From positions 27,964 to 91,963 of the forward strand of contig NZ_FOTC01000004.1 in NCBI RefSeq assembly GCF_900114455.1: a stretch of DNA of 64,000 bases, written 5' to 3'. Below the pieces are notes generated by a model, which saw only the letters and a list, made by a program, of their open reading frames with translations, searched no databases and was not told where the DNA came from. Positions 4,001-14,031 of the stretch are shown in pieces (the first letter of the stretch is position 1; every line of letters begins with the position of its first letter). Both the position numbers and the translations under genes were made by a program. This DNA is from Halogranum rubrum (GTDB taxonomy: Archaea; Halobacteriota; Halobacteria; Halobacteriales; Haloferacaceae).

Positions 4001-4149
4001 CGCGCTCTCGCTCGCGCCCCAGGGGGCGCTCACGAAGGCGCGAGCGAGAGCGCGGAGACGAGTCTGTCGGGTGACGGTGTGAGAAGTCCGCGATGTTAGT
4101 GCATCGCGGTGTCGGGCGCGTGAGCGCCTTCAGGTCTTGGTGAGACCAA
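4001..4149. promoter_or_regulatory. Run of four inverted repeats before an OB-fold gene
   Basis: Four dyads follow one another. Arms 4001-4018 and 4037-4054 are an 18-bp perfect inverted repeat with an 18-base loop that itself contains GCGCCCC/GGGGCGC. CCGCGATG (4088-4095) pairs with CATCGCGG (4102-4109). GGCGC (4115-4119) pairs with GCGCC (4124-4128) across a GTGA loop. TTGGT (4137-4141) pairs with ACCAA, ending at the ATG at 4149. Such a structure could regulate the downstream gene or act on single-stranded DNA; the function is inferred. Confidence 0.6.
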
Positions 4150-5045
4150 TGTCAAGTAACAACGCAACCAGTAATGTAGTTTCGGTCGATGAACAGGCGT
4201 TCGAGAAACAAGACGAAGCGGAAGTCGACGAGGACGGCTTCGAGGTCGTCGATGAGACGCCGAAATTCAGAGCGACGGTGCAGATGGAAGTGCAAGCGAA
4301 GGTGGATGCGAACCACCCGGACGGAATCGTCGACACGAGTGACGAGCGCATCTACGGGGCAACCCTCGAACAAGAAGAGCGCATTCGGGGTCGCGAGGAA
4401 GAGCTAGAGCGCATCAGTGCCAGAGCGACGTTTGGAACGCAAGCGGGACGAGAAGAGCGGTCGCGAGACGTGGCGGCGACACGGAGTGTAGAGCGACGGA
4501 CGAAGTTCCAGAAGCGAGCGGCGAGTGTGGATGTGTGGGCCGACCCAGAGCGAGCTGATCCACGTGAAGAGCTGACTCAGGACCAGTTGGCGGCGGTGAA
4601 CACACAGGCGGTGCGATTGAGTGAGAAGCTCGATGGCTGGTCGCGAGCGGCGATTGGGCGGCGACTCGGTGAAGTCGTCGCCGGTGAGACGGACATGATG
4701 AGCGCGGTCGTCAGCGTGTTCGAGGCGTTGCAGACGGCGCCGGGACAGGTGGTACCCATCGGGAAGCTCGAGGATGTGAATCGCAAAGAGGTGAGTGTTG
4801 AAGGGCGCGTCGAGAAATTGTGGGTACCCTCCCATCCAAGTATCAGCCAAGTGGGTCTCATCGCGGACGACAGTGGACGAACTCGAGTGACGGTCTGGAA
4901 GGCGTCAAATGCACCCCTGATGGACGAGGGCGAGCAGGTGCGCATCGATGGCGCGGCGCGAAATTGGTACGAGGGACGTGTCTCCCTGGCCGTCACTGGG
5001 TGGTCGAGTCTCACCTTCCCTGAGCGCGGTCGGTGGTGGGAATAG
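4149..5045 (+). CDS. OB-fold (RPA-like) single-strand DNA-binding protein
   Basis: 298 residues from ATG 4149; a TTG at 4137 would add four residues but lies inside a hairpin arm. Residues 1-190 are acidic and helical (EEERIRGREEELERIS, and QDQLAAVNTQAVRLSEKLDGWSRAAIGRRLGEV). Residues about 195-290 form an OB-fold as in replication protein A: VNRKEVSVEGRVEKLW, LIADDSGRTRVTVWK and GEQVRIDGAARNWYEGRVSLAV. OB-folds of this type bind single-stranded DNA in replication and repair. The N-terminal helical part resembles other plasmid-borne haloarchaeal RPA-like proteins. The hairpin run directly upstream makes autoregulation plausible, by inference. Confidence 0.75.
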   Translation: MSSNNATSNVVSVDEQAFEKQDEAEVDEDGFEVVDETPKFRATVQMEVQAKVDANHPDGIVDTSDERIYGATLEQEERIRGREEELERISARATFGTQAGREERSRDVAATRSVERRTKFQKRAASVDVWADPERADPREELTQDQLAAVNTQAVRLSEKLDGWSRAAIGRRLGEVVAGETDMMSAVVSVFEALQTAPGQVVPIGKLEDVNRKEVSVEGRVEKLWVPSHPSISQVGLIADDSGRTRVTVWKASNAPLMDEGEQVRIDGAARNWYEGRVSLAVTGWSSLTFPERGRWWE

Positions 5046-5579: not shown

Positions 5580-6383
5580 CTACATGCAGTTTGCCCAGTT
5601 GTGGTCTGCTTCGCTCCAATCTTTCTGGGTGTGGCCCATGTAGTCCTTCTCCCCATTGGCGCAAAAGTCCCAAGACATCCCACCACCAGCATCGACTGAG
5701 AAACCGCAGAGTTCGAGTGATTTGTAGGTGTGGACGTATTTCCCAGCGATGGTTGTCGAGTCACTATACCCGCTCTCGGTACGAACGTGGACGCCACCGT
5801 ACCCCCAGTCGCTGTCGTTCCTATCGATGTGCACCGCGTCGTGATACTTAAAGCTCAGACCGTTCAGCATGTTGCTGCGGTCATAGAATTCAACGTTGCT
5901 ACTATTGACCCAACTGTCGTTTTCGATTTCGAATGTGTTGTCAGGCCATCCGATCGAGAACCCGTCTTTTGATTCGACGCCCCAAGCATTGTCACCAGTG
6001 TTAAGATCGAAAGTATACTCGAAGTAGATATCGTACGGGTCAGGGTTGCAGTTCCTGTGCCAGGCCGTTATGTTGAGCGTACCGGTCATGTTACCGTCGT
6101 ACAATCGGCTGGTGGATAGCCCGTCTTCTTCCCCCCAGTGGCTTGACTGCATAGGGCTTTGGGTAGAAGTAGTCCAGACTGGGTACCCCTTCTTGCGGAG
6201 GTATTTGACGAATTTATCGTTGTCACCGGTCTTCTCACGGAGCCTTCTGGCACGTTCTAAATCGCGCCGGAACTGGTTCTCCTGTGCGGCAGTGACAGTG
6301 CCGGCCGTCGAGAGACCAATGGTGCTTGCGCCGATCGTCTTCAGTACCTTTCGTCGACTAGTCTGTCTGTTGTTTTCCTTCAT
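5580..6383 (-). CDS. Tat-secreted protein with four conserved cysteines, copy 1
   Basis: 267 residues. The N-terminus has a twin-arginine motif (SRRKVLK) followed by a hydrophobic stretch and AAQ cleavage-like site near residue 33, so the protein should be exported folded. Residues 35-70 are a charged helix (RRDLERARRLREKTG). The mature part is Gly/Tyr/Trp/Asn-rich with motifs HRNCNPDPYD, KDGFSIGWP and a C-terminal KDYMG..Q.D.SEAD..WANC. Four cysteines are shared with the neighbouring paralogue at 6459-7259, suggesting two disulfides. The two genes are in tandem, 75 bases apart. An extracellular binding or toxic role is possible; I recognise no known halocin. Confidence 0.75.
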   Translation of the reverse strand: MKENNRQTSRRKVLKTIGASTIGLSTAGTVTAAQENQFRRDLERARRLREKTGDNDKFVKYLRKKGYPVWTTSTQSPMQSSHWGEEDGLSTSRLYDGNMTGTLNITAWHRNCNPDPYDIYFEYTFDLNTGDNAWGVESKDGFSIGWPDNTFEIENDSWVNSSNVEFYDRSNMLNGLSFKYHDAVHIDRNDSDWGYGGVHVRTESGYSDSTTIAGKYVHTYKSLELCGFSVDAGGGMSWDFCANGEKDYMGHTQKDWSEADHNWANCM

Positions 6384-6458
6384 TTGTGTGATAGTGGTGT
6401 GGGTTGGTAAATTCGTGTTAACTTGTCTATATTGATGGATACTTTGCAGTCTGATTAG

Positions 6459-7259
6459 TTATTGGCAGTTTGCCCAATACTGGTCAGCCTCGCTGTAGTC
6501 CGTCTGCGTGAATCCCATGTAGTCCTTCTTCCCGTCGTTGCAGAAGGACCACGACGGTTCTCCTGACCCACTCGCAGAGGCTCCACAAATGGTTAGGTTA
6601 TCATACGTATGAGCCCACTTCCCGGCAAAAGTGGAGCTATCGCCGTATCCACTTTCTGTATTCATGTAACAGCCACCGTACCCGGAATCGTAATCATCTC
6701 CCCAATACCCACCGAGGCCCGTGTCGTCATATTTGAAGAAAACGGCGTTCAAGCTGTTATCCCGCGTGTGGAAATCGACGTTGCTACTCGATGTAGCTGA
6801 GTTCTCTTCGTACTGGAAATCCGACGCAGGCCATCCAACAGAGAACCCATCTTTGTCACCATCCCCACTACCGCCGTTCATGTTCCACTCGAAGTAGTAT
6901 TCTGCATAGACATCATACGGGTCTGGGTTACAGTTTCTGTGCCACGCACTCACGTTGATAGTCGCGGTCAACTCGTCACTTGAAAGCCGCTGCGTTGACG
7001 GCCCATCGTTCCCTCCCAAATGAACCTTGTCGTGCACTGTGTTCGATTTTACAGCGTAACCCTTCTTCTGGAGATATTCAATGAACTTGTTATTCTCCCC
7101 GGTCTTCTCCCTGAGTTTGCGTGCCTGGTCAACGTCGCGTCGGAATTGGTTCTCACGTTTAGCAGTGACGGTGCCGACCGTTGAAAAGCCGATTGCGCTC
7201 GCGCCAATGGTTTTCAATACATTACGCCGGTTCGTATTGTCTTGTTTCCGAACCATCAC
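6459..7259 (-). CDS. Tat-secreted protein with conserved cysteines, copy 2
   Basis: 266 residues, tandem paralogue of the protein at 5580-6383. It has a twin-arginine region (NRRNVLK), hydrophobic segment and TVTAK export end near residue 34, the same charged helix (RRDVDQARKLREKTG) and the same HRNCNPDPYD, KDGFSVGWP and KDYMGFTQTDYSEAD..WANC blocks. It has an extra Cys (GGCYMNT) absent from copy 1. The insert between the helix and HRNC is shorter and differs most, which fits divergence after tandem duplication. It is divergent from the lipoprotein gene at 7371, with an AT-rich promoter region between. Function unknown. Confidence 0.75.
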   Translation of the reverse strand: MMVRKQDNTNRRNVLKTIGASAIGFSTVGTVTAKRENQFRRDVDQARKLREKTGENNKFIEYLQKKGYAVKSNTVHDKVHLGGNDGPSTQRLSSDELTATINVSAWHRNCNPDPYDVYAEYYFEWNMNGGSGDGDKDGFSVGWPASDFQYEENSATSSSNVDFHTRDNSLNAVFFKYDDTGLGGYWGDDYDSGYGGCYMNTESGYGDSSTFAGKWAHTYDNLTICGASASGSGEPSWSFCNDGKKDYMGFTQTDYSEADQYWANCQ

Positions 7260-7370
7260 CTATTACTTTCAGATGATTTTATATATATCTTTTCATCCAA
7301 TTGGTTTGGTAATTCTATATTGGAATCAAGAATAAGATATTTGTATTTGGGTTATAAACACAATCTTGAA
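7260..7370. promoter_or_regulatory. AT-rich divergent promoter region
   Basis: Between divergent start codons. The tract at 7277-7290 (ttttatatatatc) is TATA-like for the leftward secreted-protein gene. The segments at 7335-7346 and 7350-7357 are TATA-like for the rightward lipoprotein and would place transcription at or very near its ATG, so that transcript may be leaderless. Inferred from composition and spacing. Confidence 0.4.
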
Positions 7371-7829
7371 ATGTACCGTCGGAAATTCCTCGCAACGAGT
7401 AGTGCCCTCCTGAGCCTCGGAATAGCCGGATGTCTCGCCGGCGCCGATGGAACAGACAAGACACAGAATAAAACTGTAAGCGACGAGGCCCAGAATCAAG
7501 CTGGAAAAGTTCAACTAAAACGAATCCGCATAGAAAACCACTCGGGAAAGCAGACCCTTTTCAATGTTGACCTCGCCCGTAATGGAGACCATCCGTATCA
7601 CAGTCAACTGGATATCGGACCCAATGAAACAGTCACCATCTCGGATTGGACCCAAACCGGCAGAACCTTTACCGCCGTCGGTATGTCAAAGCGGTTTGGA
7701 AATTACGAGATGGTAGCTGTCAATTCAGCCGAAGAGCAGTCGATGAAAACATTGGAGATCCACTTCACAATTGATGAACAAGGCGATGTTGCCGGAACAG
7801 TCAAGCCAATTAGCGACTCGAATGCATGA
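7371..7829 (+). CDS. Small secreted lipoprotein
   Basis: 152 residues from ATG 7371. MYRRKFLATSSALLSLGIAGC combines an RRKFL twin-arginine-like motif with a lipobox (IAGC, Cys21), so export and lipid anchoring are expected. After an Asn/Gln/Thr-rich linker (about 25-48), the rest looks like a single beta-sandwich (VQLKRIRIENHSGK, TLFNVDLARNG, GPNETVTISDW, MKTLEIHFTIDEQGDV). Codon use is noticeably more AT-rich than in the surrounding metabolic genes, in line with recent acquisition of the 5.5-7.9 kb block. No specific function. Confidence 0.7.
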   Translation: MYRRKFLATSSALLSLGIAGCLAGADGTDKTQNKTVSDEAQNQAGKVQLKRIRIENHSGKQTLFNVDLARNGDHPYHSQLDIGPNETVTISDWTQTGRTFTAVGMSKRFGNYEMVAVNSAEEQSMKTLEIHFTIDEQGDVAGTVKPISDSNA

Positions 7830-7969: not shown

Positions 7970-8488
7970 CGATAATCCCTATGGATACGCCGCTCTTGAT
8001 AGCACGTTCTTCGACCGCCGCCGTGCGTCTCGTACTTCCGCCAGCGGTCGGGGAGCACCGTACAGACGCTTAAATTAACGACATTAACTGATGTGGAGTA
8101 CTCTTGGAGTTCTCGGCGTTCACATCACAGCGTGGTGGAAACACGATACGAAAGCCAAATCGCAGGTCGTCCGCCGGTACGAACGCGGAGACCTGCAGTC
8201 CGTGGCTGCCGACAACGGATTTCAAGAATGGCACATCGATACGAGATTGCCGCATACGACATTGAGTACCTTGTTCACTACCGTGGATCATCACCGAAAG
8301 CAGCGGTGAACAACGTGCTCAACCAGACAAAAGGCTACTCTCAGCGTTGGATGGCCGAAACGTCGTACTCAACAACGAAGCGCTCGCTCGGCGATGCCGT
8401 GCGAGCGCTGGGTTGGTATCGTCAGTTCCGTGAAATTGTCTTGATGTTCGCTATCACCAACATAGAATCGCTGTGTGAGTCGCTTTAA
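7970..8488 (+). pseudogene. Decayed IS5-type halophilic transposase
   Basis: Transposase-like fragments occur in more than one frame: YGYAALDSTFFDRR near 7985, YERGDLQSVAADNGFQEW near 8180, and AETSYSTTKRSLGDAVRALGW followed by FREIVLMFAITNIE at 8352-8467. These match the order of the DDE transposase core and C-terminus of haloarchaeal IS5-group elements. Frame changes between the pieces show it is inactive. Terminal repeats could not be defined. It sits immediately before the TFB leader. Confidence 0.7.
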
Positions 8489-8651: not shown

Positions 8652-9608
8652 ATGGCAACGAGAAACATCTACGAAACGGCGTTCGACGAAGACGTCCAGT
8701 GTGAGTCCAGTTCGAACAGCTGTCCCGAATGCAACGGTCACGTGGCAACGAACGCCCTAGAAACAGTCTGTGAAGACTGTGGGCTCGTCATCGCAGACCA
8801 GCAAATCGACCACGGCCCCGAGTGGCGCTCGTTCGAAGACGACGACACCAACCGCGAACGGACGGGCACCCCACTCACAGCGGCCCGTCACGACCGGGGC
8901 TTGTCGACCACGATCGGGCGCAGCACCGATGGGAAGAACAATGCACTCTCCAGTCAGAAACGATGTCAGCTTGCCCGACTGCGACGTGAACACAGTCGTA
9001 GCCGGTTCCAGTCGAAAGCCGAGCGCAACCTCGCACACGGGTTAGGTGAAGTCCGAAGAATCACGAGCACGCTCGAACTCGGTGGCTCGATTCGCGACCA
9101 AGCGTGTCAGCTCTTCCGGAGTGCCCAACGCGAGGACCTCTTGTTGGGTCGGTCGATTGAAGCGATCGCCGCCGCCAGCGTCTACGGAATCTGTCGGTGT
9201 CACGGACGGCCACTCGCACGTGACGATCTCGTCGACGTTGCTCGTGTCGACCACTCAAGTGTCACGAACGCGTACAAGACGCTCAACAAAGAACTGGGTC
9301 TCCCGACACAACCCGTCGCCCCACAATCGCTCATTCCGAAGCTCGCCTCGGAACTCAATGTCAATTCACAGGTTCGTCGTCGGGCACGGGCGCTTGCCGA
9401 GCGCGCGCATGAGACGTCCATTACGAACGGCTATCAGCCGTCTGGGGTTGCTGCAGCCTGTCTCTATCTCGCCAGTCGTGAACACGGAGAGTCACTGACA
9501 CAGACACAGGTTGCAGCGGCCGCTGGAACGACGCCGGCGACATTGCGAGCACGACATGCAGAACTCATCGAGCTAATCGACGGGGAGGTCCAAGTCGCAT
9601 CAACGTAG
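8652..9608 (+). CDS. tfb: Transcription initiation factor IIB (TFB), accessory copy
   Basis: 318 residues from ATG 8652; upstream codons are in frame but cover the GC element. TFB joins TBP at the promoter and recruits RNA polymerase. The N-terminal zinc ribbon has C24-x2-C27-x12-C40-x2-C43. A B-reader-like segment follows (EWRSFEDDDTNRERTGTP, then TAARHDRGLSTTIG). Two cyclin-like repeats occupy about 110-205 (RDQACQLFRSA, SIEAIAAASVYGICR) and 210-305 (RRRARALAERA, PSGVAAACLYLASREHG, TQTQVAAAAGTTPATLR). The length matches the family. Its setting beside transposase debris marks it as one of the extra TFBs haloarchaea carry, probably serving a subset of promoters. Confidence 0.93.
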   Translation: MATRNIYETAFDEDVQCESSSNSCPECNGHVATNALETVCEDCGLVIADQQIDHGPEWRSFEDDDTNRERTGTPLTAARHDRGLSTTIGRSTDGKNNALSSQKRCQLARLRREHSRSRFQSKAERNLAHGLGEVRRITSTLELGGSIRDQACQLFRSAQREDLLLGRSIEAIAAASVYGICRCHGRPLARDDLVDVARVDHSSVTNAYKTLNKELGLPTQPVAPQSLIPKLASELNVNSQVRRRARALAERAHETSITNGYQPSGVAAACLYLASREHGESLTQTQVAAAAGTTPATLRARHAELIELIDGEVQVAST

Positions 9609-12417: not shown

Positions 12418-14031
12418 CTACCGCTTTCTATAGGCGGCAATATCCTTCTTGGTGAACTCTCCGTCGCCGTCGAAGTCCAGCGCGACCACCTGCGCGTTCG
12501 TGAGCTGAATCTCTCCTTTCCGGTGGGCGGCCTCCAGTTGCGTCAAGCGCGAGACGTCGTGGCCGTCGACGTCACCATCGCCGTCGAGGTCCTCGTAGAG
12601 CCCGTCACCGTCGAGATCTTGGGGATCGACTACCTTTCCGTTCTTTAGGACGATCGGCTCCGGGAACACCGCCAACTGCTCCAGTTCGAACACGTACGCC
12701 GAGCCCGAGTGGCGACCATTGTCGTCGTCTGTATACGCCCCAATGAGGGCGGTGGTCCCGTCGGCGTTCACCGACACCGAGATGCCGAAGTCATCTAAGG
12801 CAGCGGCGTCGCTGGCGGTGAGTTTCGTCTCGGCTGGTGGATCCTGGCACAGGTCGTAGACGTACGCCGATCCCGATTCAGTGCCAGCGTCATTATTTCC
12901 CCAAGCTCCGACGAGGGCAGTTGTTCCGTCACTGCTCACTGATACGTCGTGGCCGAAGAGATCGCCGTCGGCGGCGTCGCCGGCAGTGAGCTTCGTCTCG
13001 GCTGGCGGATCCTGGCACAGATCGTAAACGTACGCCGATCCCGATTCAGTGCCAGCGTCATCATCTCCCGAAGCCCCCACGAGCGCCGTGTTCCCGTCGC
13101 CGCTCACCGACACCGCTGAGCCGAAGAAATCATCGGCGGAGGCGTCGCTGGCGGTGAGTTTTGTCTCTGTCGGCGGGTCCTGGCTCAGGTCATAGACGTA
13201 CGCTGAACCTGAGTATTCGCCAGTGTGATCATCTCCCCGTGCCCCGACGAGGGCGGTGGTCCCGTCGGTGCTCACCGACACCGCAAAGGCGAATTCAGCA
13301 CCGCCGGCGGCGTCGCTGGCGGTGAATTTTGTTTCGGTCGGTGGGTCCTGGCACAGGTCGTAGACGTACGCTGAGCCTGAGTATTCGTCAGTGTCGTCGC
13401 TTCCGTGAGCTCCGACAAGGGCAGTGTTTCCGTCACCGCTTAGCGAAACCGCGTAGCCAAAGAGATCGCCGCTGGCGGCGTCACTGGCAGTGAGTTTCAT
13501 CTCGGTCGGTGGGTCCTGTCTCAGGTCATAGACGTACGCTGCCCCCGATTGAATGCCAGCGTCATTATCTCCCGAAGCCCCCACGAGCGCCGTGTTCCCG
13601 TCGCCGCTCATCGACACCGCAAAGGCGAATTGAACGCCGCTGGCGGCGTCGCTGGCGGTGAGTTTCGTTTCAGTCGGTGGGTCCTGACTTAGGTCGTAGA
13701 CGTACGCCGACCCTGAGCCAGGTCCAGCGTCGTCGCTTCCGTGAGCTCCGATGAGCGCCATACTCCCGTCGGCGCTCACAGATACAGATACGCCGAAGTT
13801 ATCTAAGGCGGCGCCGTCGCTGGCGGTGAGTTTCTTGACCTGAGTAAACAGTCGGGTGGATCGAACCTCGCTAAGGCGGCCGGCGGCGACGAGCGAATCA
13901 AGTTGGGCACCGAGAGCTGTCCCGCTTCCGGCGACGCTTGCGGTGCCGAGGATACCGAGTGCTTTGAGCATCCGGCGGCGGGAGTGATTCGCTATCGGGT
14001 TGGTTGATCTCGTATGGGTTTTGTTTTGCAC
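12418..14031 (-). CDS. Tat-secreted seven-repeat beta-propeller with dockerin-like end
   Basis: 537 residues. A twin-arginine signal (SRRRMLKALGILGTASVAG, about 17-35) gives export. Seven tandem repeats of about 55 residues fill 65-445. Each runs KLTASDAA..D.FG.AVSVS.DG.TALVGA..DDD....SGSAYVYDL.QDPP(A/T)ET, resembling FG-GAP/integrin-alpha-like blades, so seven repeats predict one seven-bladed propeller. The C-terminal 90 residues have calcium-type Asp loops (DLDGDGLYEDLDGDGDVDG, and DFDGDGEFTKKD) as in dockerin or EF-hand modules. An extracellular adhesion or matrix role is likely. Repeats are nearly identical in parts, indicating recent expansion or gene conversion. Confidence 0.8.
   Translation of the reverse strand: MQNKTHTRSTNPIANHSRRRMLKALGILGTASVAGSGTALGAQLDSLVAAGRLSEVRSTRLFTQVKKLTASDGAALDNFGVSVSVSADGSMALIGAHGSDDAGPGSGSAYVYDLSQDPPTETKLTASDAASGVQFAFAVSMSGDGNTALVGASGDNDAGIQSGAAYVYDLRQDPPTEMKLTASDAASGDLFGYAVSLSGDGNTALVGAHGSDDTDEYSGSAYVYDLCQDPPTETKFTASDAAGGAEFAFAVSVSTDGTTALVGARGDDHTGEYSGSAYVYDLSQDPPTETKLTASDASADDFFGSAVSVSGDGNTALVGASGDDDAGTESGSAYVYDLCQDPPAETKLTAGDAADGDLFGHDVSVSSDGTTALVGAWGNNDAGTESGSAYVYDLCQDPPAETKLTASDAAALDDFGISVSVNADGTTALIGAYTDDDNGRHSGSAYVFELEQLAVFPEPIVLKNGKVVDPQDLDGDGLYEDLDGDGDVDGHDVSRLTQLEAAHRKGEIQLTNAQVVALDFDGDGEFTKKDIAAYRKR

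What the first reader, a model, noticed from the sequence alone, without database searches (positions are those of the whole stretch)
5580..7259. Tandem pair of Tat-secreted cysteine-containing proteins
Two 266-267 residue proteins with the same HRNCNPDPYD, (K)DGF(S)(I/V)GWP and KDYMG..Q.D.SEAD..WANC blocks and a shared charged helix after the signal. Four cysteines are conserved. I recognise no family. Exported, disulfide-bonded, tandem-duplicated and low in GC: a possible antimicrobial or adhesin pair.
Basis: partly seen in the sequence, partly recalled or inferred. Interest (0 to 1): 0.55.

Follow-up and report, generated by a model that had tools for sequence, protein, structure and literature searches.

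The report
Putative secreted haloarchaeal toxin–immunity cassette
Two neighbouring genes encode exported proteins of an unannotated, fast-changing family of salt-loving archaea whose genes often sit beside a small membrane protein, the arrangement expected of a weapon and its self-protection gene.

Summary
The tandem pair is real: 267 and 265-266 residues, 54% identical, twin-arginine (Tat) signals, four shared cysteines; no Pfam, NCBIfam, PHROGs or PADLOC family above cut-off. They belong to a diverse, patchy haloarchaeal family: Tat signal, a helical segment (A..(I/L)R..TG....F..YL in the nearer members), then a probably beta-rich domain. The cysteines are not a family trait. Family genes are poorer in GC than their surroundings (73 of 74 loci tested; median 46% against 64%). 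The telling observation lies outside the given coordinates: 40 of 76 family loci have, within 250 bp, a small hydrophobic membrane protein (mostly about 60-residue two-helix hairpins) or a 100-220-residue lipoprotein. Controls: 0 of 59 loci of two other exported families, 10 of 108 other genes, mean 1.2 of 76 with shuffled flanks. In the window the partner is the divergent lipoprotein at 7371-7829; its homologue stands beside the pair's closest relative in another genus. Related partners recur on either side and strand, and also without a family gene. I read this as a halocin-like secreted toxin family with exchangeable membrane immunity proteins. Killing and immunity are inferred, not shown; structure prediction failed, so fold and target are open.

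The parts
5580..6383 (-). p1: Tat-exported protein of the new family, 267 aa (signal about 1-32, helical segment about 34-68, probably beta-rich domain after that)
   Evidence: ORF and translation; 54% identical to p2; family profile E 3e-100; no known family above cut-off; helices and strands only from a poor model
6459..7256 (-). p2: tandem paralogue of p1, 265 aa from ATG 7256 (266 aa if the GTG at 7259 is used)
   Evidence: closest relative outside this genome 47-48% identical (G124, L005/L049)
7371..7829 (+). candidate immunity protein: 152-aa lipoprotein (signal with lipobox LGIAGC), divergent from p2
   Evidence: homologous to the divergent lipoprotein beside L049, the closest relative (phmmer E 2e-15; 26% identity); strands only in a poor model
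7257..7370 (.). short AT-rich region between the divergent p2 and lipoprotein genes; presumably carries both promoters (inference)
   Evidence: sequence

Best explanation
p1 and p2 are two paralogous secreted toxins of a halocin-like haloarchaeal family, and the divergent lipoprotein at 7371-7829 is their shared immunity protein. Proposed working: (1) each protein folds in the cytoplasm and is exported by Tat, as its signal indicates; (2) the signal is removed and the soluble protein, which has no membrane anchor, is released; (3) the probably beta-rich domain recognises the envelope of related haloarchaea, and the protein, possibly through the N-terminal helical segment, damages membrane or surface; (4) the producer is spared because a lipid-anchored protein on its outer membrane face (or, in other family members, a two-helix hairpin in the membrane) binds or shields the toxin's site of action. 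Shown here: the export signal, the family, the linkage to membrane partners, the homology of partners between loci, the low GC. Inferred: steps 2 to 4.
For: Partner linkage: 40 of 76 loci have a small hydrophobic membrane ORF (28) or a lipoprotein (12) within 250 bp; 37 of 66 after removing near-copies. Controls by the same rule: 0 of 30 halocyanin and 0 of 29 subtilase loci of 30 of the same genomes, 10 of 108 other genes of the first loci with the partner excluded (Fisher p 2e-13 and 8e-11). The rule was written after reading the first 41 loci; 35 loci whose flanks I had not read give 19 of 35. Shuffled flanks give a mean of 1.2 and at most 5 of 76 (60 rounds), so AT-rich DNA does not explain it. 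Partners are homologous between loci yet lie upstream or downstream, on either strand. Partner class follows the family tree (25 changes, shuffled mean 36.9, as low in 0 of 200; near-copies included). Hairpin genes look constrained (dN/dS about 0.14 and 0.24 in two pairs). GC is below the flanks in 73 of 74 loci. Annotated records: Halomarina BND7 WP_254547422 has a lipoprotein gene 6 bases away (meets the rule); DL31 Halar_0376 has a 71-aa two-TM gene one gene on, about 425 bp away (outside the rule). Hairpins and lipoproteins without a family gene fit orphan immunity. Some members are broken or tandem.
Against: No activity, expression or confident structure. 36 of 76 loci fail the strict rule and 20 of 76 have no partner even among relaxed, hand-chosen ones; of four plasmid loci only one meets the rule. 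The lipoprotein class is widespread: of 11 strong matches not used in the profile, the 10 whose DNA I held have no family gene within 1.5 kb; 14 hairpin matches likewise. These proteins may have another job. A looser first version of the test gave only 25 of 41 against 27 of 91 (p 0.001) and 4 of 23 genes of the window. In several pairs the partner diverges faster than the exported protein, which is not diagnostic. AlphaFold2 models were poor.
Confidence: 0.6

Rival explanations
1. The exported protein is a surface or adhesion/self-recognition factor, and the membrane protein or lipoprotein is its anchor, receptor or assembly partner rather than an immunity protein.
For: Both partner classes sit at the membrane and the exported protein looks soluble and probably beta-rich; variable surface genes can also be low in GC and patchy.
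Against: Partners fall into several groups without detectable relation and change class on the tree, which an assembly partner would be expected to do less; hairpins also occur without a family gene; no transmembrane segment after the signal in 72 of 72 members.
Confidence: 0.17
2. The family are latent precursors like HmHapP (HFX_0892): an extracellular serine protease frees the N-terminal helical piece, which is the active peptide, and the larger domain is a carrier.
For: Same layout and size: HmHapP has 235 residues without its signal (705 bp), a 45-aa two-helix N-terminal piece and a 190-aa remainder (PMC12893001); p1 is about 235 residues after the signal, and the poor model still shows two N-terminal helices. 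Deleting hapP left antagonism in place, so further precursors exist there. The window's genome has six subtilase matches. In the 11-row alignment four of the few conserved positions outside the signal (A45, T52, G53, L62 of p1) lie in the helical segment.
Against: Peptides read from the HmHapP primers show no trace of the family's helical pattern; its full sequence was not obtainable. In the 36-row alignment only two signal arginines and D140 remain (nearly) invariant. Helix charge varies from -9 to +7. That paper's held text mentions immunity only in a reference title.
Confidence: 0.12
3. It is a virus-related or defence cassette (for example a decoy or a superinfection-exclusion pair acting at the cell surface).
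For: Accessory, low-GC location; transposase genes near some loci (annotated in DL31; by my reading in others).
Against: No match in phages with p2, no confirmed relative in three viral-contig scans, none in PHROGs or PADLOC.
Confidence: 0.06
4. Ordinary secreted enzyme or stress protein, with chance or AT-rich neighbours.
For: Nothing is known of catalytic residues; no expression data.
Against: Partner linkage and homology; no Pfam or NCBIfam family at E <= 0.01 in any of 36 members besides Tat-signal models.
Confidence: 0.05

Closest known systems
HmHapP / HFX_0892 of Haloferax mediterranei (PMC12893001; read: abstract, all three parts of the results, discussion, two methods sections, passages)
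   Same: Exported haloarchaeal precursor of the same size, an N-terminal helical piece of 45 aa followed by 190 aa; antagonistic to other haloarchaea.
   Different: Primer-derived peptides do not show the family's motif; no partner or immunity gene appears in the parts I read; acts after cleavage by halolysin. Homology could not be tested directly.
Halocin C8 (HalC8/HalI; features recalled; that one gene directs production and immunity is the title of a reference seen)
   Same: Exported haloarchaeal antagonist with self-protection.
   Different: Small cysteine-rich C-terminal peptide with its immunity part on the same precursor (recalled). Here the immunity candidate is a separate gene and cysteines are few and not conserved. 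A protein that looks HalC8-like to me (L014) matched p2 only over residues 1-70, the signal and helical region.
Bacterial bacteriocins with small membrane immunity proteins (recalled)
   Same: Exported killer gene next to a small membrane protein, exchangeable partners, orphan immunity genes.
   Different: No sequence relation found in the libraries searched; Tat export of a protein of about 235 residues; a second partner class is a lipoprotein.
Thermococcales hypervariable immunoglobulin-domain module (PMC8416519; search listing with start of abstract only)
   Same: Archaeal hypervariable locus placed in the context of conflict and self/nonself recognition.
   Different: Large proteins with several Ig domains; another order; no relation tested.

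Membership tests
halocin (functional class) | exported from the cell | tested here: met
   Tat motif in p1 and p2; RR motif in 69 of 72 members, no transmembrane segment after the signal in 72 of 72. Sequence evidence only.
halocin (functional class) | inhibits other haloarchaea | not testable with these tools
   needs culture or purified protein
halocin (functional class) | producer carries an immunity function | tested here: inconclusive
   membrane partner linked in 40 of 76 loci by a strict rule, 56 of 76 with relaxed hand-chosen partners; protection itself untested
halocin C8 family | cysteine-rich C-terminal peptide (about ten cysteines, recalled) | tested here: not met
   0 to 7 cysteines after residue 35 over 72 members, 15 with none
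HmHapP-type precursor | sequence relation to HFX_0892 | not testable with these tools
   sequence not held; a native primer string was found in 0 of 5 genomes of one genus and 0 of 74 genomes of the window's family, so the organism was probably not in the sample
HmHapP-type precursor | N-terminal helical segment then a larger domain | tested here: inconclusive
   two N-terminal helices (block pLDDT 54-68) in an otherwise failed model, mean pLDDT 35.6
any Pfam, NCBIfam, PHROGs or PADLOC family | match above the curated cut-off or with a clear E-value | tested here: not met
   only Tat-signal models and weak, below-cut-off hits such as Ribosomal_S15 (E 0.053) on the helical segment

The most novel reading that the evidence does not exclude
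A large, polymorphic family of Tat-exported toxins, spread over much of the Halobacteria on low-GC islands and plasmids, each paired with one of several unrelated membrane-bound immunity proteins (two-helix hairpins or lipoproteins) that also persist as orphan immunity genes: a haloarchaeal toxin-immunity arms race that could account for part of the unidentified halocin activity.
Probability: 0.42. Interest if true: 0.78.

Novelty: new variant of a known kind. Interest (0 to 1): 0.62.

Why it matters
Halocin production is considered common among halophilic archaea (start of the abstract of PMC3831642, search listing), yet few producing genes are known and separate immunity genes hardly at all (recalled). 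A family with a recognisable partner gene gives dozens of toxin-immunity candidates, some in named organisms and on plasmids, and a direct test: does the small membrane gene protect against its neighbour? It would also show how an archaeal envelope, which lacks peptidoglycan, is attacked and guarded. Caution on novelty: a 2019 mBio survey of archaeal toxins and archaeocins (doi 10.1128/mBio.00715-19, content recalled) predicted candidates among uncharacterised families. It is not held here, so I cannot say whether this family is in its lists.

Tried and rejected
Ribosomal_S15 (E 0.053) and formate_TAT (E 0.017): far below their cut-offs, covering only the helical segment or the signal region; rejected. 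Single-sequence hits L011, L014 and L019 cover only the signal and helical region, and L016 lies inside a different 670-aa ORF; left out of the family. Profile A2 finds 74 of 391 genomes, but many rows match only the signal, so that is not a count of carriers.

Structure: p1 with p2 and the Natrinema mahii relative gave mean pLDDT 35.6; the lipoprotein alone 43.6. No fold search was run, since such models give meaningless matches.

Relatives elsewhere: genome contigs with A3 none confirmed, with A6 one, Natrinema mahii H13; viral contigs, three scans, none confirmed; phages none.

Partner tests, all versions: 22 of 41 at 300 bp without a control, looser rule, 25 of 41 against 27 of 91 other genes and 4 of 23 window genes, 41 of 77 against 17 of 90, 0 of 30 and 0 of 29, 40 of 76 against 10 of 108 after excluding the partner itself from the controls, 0 of 30 and 0 of 29. 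Dropped or set by hand: L137 (same locus as L156), L151 (no hit), a signal-only second hit in L083, extents of L052 and L070, and one false ORF in L155 for the curated list. Subtilase control L213 had no usable frame. Removing near-copies leaves 37 of 66. The 56 of 76 figure includes 16 partners chosen by eye, three of them about 400 aa long, and has no matched control; I do not rest on it. In one search the family comparison for L081/L083 used the wrong L083 gene and is ignored. The GC test used 74 of 76 loci (two with too little flank).

Weaker lipoprotein matches (144 of 391 genomes in all at E <= 1e-5) were not examined; many look signal-driven. Pfam on ten hairpins and ten lipoprotein-type partners: only below-cut-off hits. 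Promoter scan: at shuffle level and of the wrong type for archaea.

Full report
WHAT IS THERE. On the minus strand, 5580-6383 (p1, 267 aa) and 6459-7259 (p2, 266 aa from GTG; 265 aa from the ATG at 7256) encode two Tat-signal proteins 54% identical over 269 aligned positions. They share four cysteines. They are 52.7% and 51.3% GC in a window of 57.2%. Neither has a Pfam, NCBIfam, PHROGs or PADLOC family beyond weak, below-cut-off hits to the signal or helical segment; p1 and the first family profile have no meaningful PDB match. The window is positions 27964-91963 of a 253-kb contig of an unnamed 4.57-Mb genome, a haloarchaeon by its relatives; no further member was found in it.

THE FAMILY. 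A search with p2 finds 13 of 391 genomes of the class (its own included) at E <= 1e-3, only one other with a close copy (48%, G124). A 36-row profile, built up through an 11-row one, matches 45 of 125 genomes of one other family and 15 of 170 of the window's own family (its own genome included) at E <= 1e-8, some of them in part only. Named carriers are Natrinema mahii H13, plasmid phalar01 of archaeon DL31, two Halomarina sp. BND7 plasmids and a Halorussus aquaticus plasmid (family profile E 1e-43 to 2e-53). Members share a Tat signal (RR motif in 69 of 72), a helical segment best seen in the nearer members as A..(I/L)R..TG....F..YL, then typically D.(I/F)...W, a D, and Y.HT(W/Y); no transmembrane segment follows the signal in 72 of 72. 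Of 36 members scanned, none matches a Pfam or NCBIfam family at E <= 0.01 except Tat-signal models. Family genes have median GC 0.462 against 0.643 for their flanks, lower in 73 of 74 loci tested. Some copies are broken: 7 of 65 listed matches have stops inside. Another tandem pair lies in L079.

THE PARTNER GENE. Reading the flanks of 41 loci, the window's included, showed small membrane proteins again and again. I then wrote a fixed rule: within 250 bp, an ORF of 45-120 aa with a transmembrane stretch and mean hydropathy over 0.7, or one of 100-220 aa with a lipobox. I applied it also to 35 further loci whose flanks I had not read. Result: 21 of 41 and 19 of 35, together 40 of 76 (28 hydrophobic ORFs, mostly two-helix hairpins, and 12 lipoproteins), or 37 of 66 without near-copies. 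Controls by the same rule: 0 of 30 halocyanin and 0 of 29 subtilase loci from 30 of the same genomes, 10 of 108 other genes in the first loci with the partner excluded, and dinucleotide-shuffled flanks mean 1.2, at most 5 of 76 in 60 rounds. The last control matters because the islands are AT-rich and AT-rich DNA makes hydrophobic ORFs. Earlier, looser versions gave weaker contrasts (25 of 41 against 27 of 91, and 4 of 23 window genes; 41 of 77 against 17 of 90).

Partners are related to one another between loci. The roughly 60-aa hairpins of L081, L083 and L105 (E down to 2e-20) lie upstream-opposite, downstream-opposite and upstream-same. L085, L113, L117, L145, L149 and L154 form a looser group (E 3e-10 to 2e-4) with varied placement. 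L111, L112, L141 and L142 carry related lipoproteins just downstream; L080, L110 and L078 others. Linkage that survives rearrangement argues for selection on the pair. Hairpins look like real genes by dN/dS (about 0.14 for L056/L057, about 0.24 for L081/L083). Partner class clusters on the family tree (25 changes, shuffled mean 36.9, as low in 0 of 200; near-copies are included, and 27 of 69 inner branches of this quick tree are weak). Of four annotated plasmid loci one meets the rule: the Halomarina gene WP_254547422 has a convergent lipoprotein gene 6 bases away. In DL31 a 71-aa two-helix gene, Halar_0378, lies about 425 bp beyond Halar_0376, with one gene between. The first Halomarina locus has only a 68-aa lipobox ORF about 110 bp upstream, and the Halorussus locus none.

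IN THE WINDOW the partner is the 152-aa lipoprotein at 7371-7829 (+), divergent from p2 across about 110 bp of AT-rich DNA. Its homologue stands in the same divergent place beside L049, the nearest relative of p1/p2, in another genus (phmmer E 2e-15; 26% identity). One lipoprotein for two tandem exported proteins suggests a duplicated toxin with one guard (inference).

AGAINST THE READING. 36 of 76 loci fail the strict rule and 20 of 76 have no partner even by relaxed hand inspection. A lipoprotein profile finds 11 strong matches (E < 1e-24) besides those used to build it, by eye mostly of the L067/L068 type; the 10 whose DNA I held have no family gene within 1.5 kb. A hairpin profile finds 14 matches besides its three source loci, the last few weak, again with no family gene within 1.5 kb. 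These can be orphan immunity genes, which are known from toxin-immunity systems (general knowledge), or signs of another role. Models of p1 and of the lipoprotein are poor. Nothing here shows killing.

COMPARISON. The best functional parallel I found is HmHapP of Haloferax mediterranei (PMC12893001): a 235-residue exported precursor whose 45-aa two-helix N-terminus, freed by halolysin, lyses haloarchaea; its deletion left antagonism in place, so that organism has further precursors. Layout and size agree; peptides read from its primers do not show our motif; its full sequence could not be obtained. So 'works like' is possible, membership untested. Halocin C8 differs in its cysteine-rich peptide and fused immunity part (recalled; the reference title agrees on the second point). 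My searches for a description of such a family showed none in titles and abstract starts; I read only PMC12893001, and a 2019 mBio survey of archaeal toxins was not held.

VERDICT. Observation confirmed; interpretation partly supported and sharpened: a putative halocin-like toxin family with membrane immunity partners, confidence 0.6. New variant of a known kind (toxin-immunity pairs), in a protein family that appears undescribed in the libraries searched.

Noticed in passing
window 8652-9608 (+): A transcription factor B gene (TFIIB repeats and zinc ribbon, Pfam) lies about 0.8 kb beyond the lipoprotein; a TFB with a nearly identical N-terminus stands divergent from a lipoprotein in L230 (329-1336), where the 3.4 kb held show no family gene.
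   Followed up: partly
window 4149-5045 (+): OB-fold nucleic-acid-binding protein (Pfam E 4e-5, just below cut-off) downstream of p1; a similar C-terminal stretch occurs near the family gene of a Halomarina plasmid (L219 4215-4418, seen by eye).
   Followed up: no
window 12418-14031 (-): Tat-signal-like protein with seven FG-GAP_2 stretches and a C-terminal dockerin domain.
   Followed up: no
window 8093-8488 (+): ORF similar to what I read as transposases in L072 and L088; no Pfam match. Possibly an insertion-sequence remnant.
   Followed up: no
L014 1456-2334: 292-aa Tat-signal ORF with a cysteine-rich C-terminal part that looks like a halocin C8 type precursor (my reading, no test).
   Followed up: no
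L255-L268: Hairpin genes of the L081/L083/L105 type in 9 genomes (14 matches, the last few weak) with no family gene in the 1.5 kb held on each side.
   Followed up: partly
L115 (G057:C1:901093-901935 and 923376-924218): Two family copies with the same score 22 kb apart in one genome, perhaps a recent duplication.
   Followed up: no
L062 4907-6100, L069 2522-3721, L074 2557-3768: Related proteins of about 400 aa, two of them with a lipobox, adjacent to three family genes in place of a small partner.
   Followed up: no
L219 2286-2872 (-): A 68-aa lipobox ORF and an overlapping ORF divergent from the family gene of a Halomarina plasmid; perhaps a broken partner gene. Not mended or searched.
   Followed up: no
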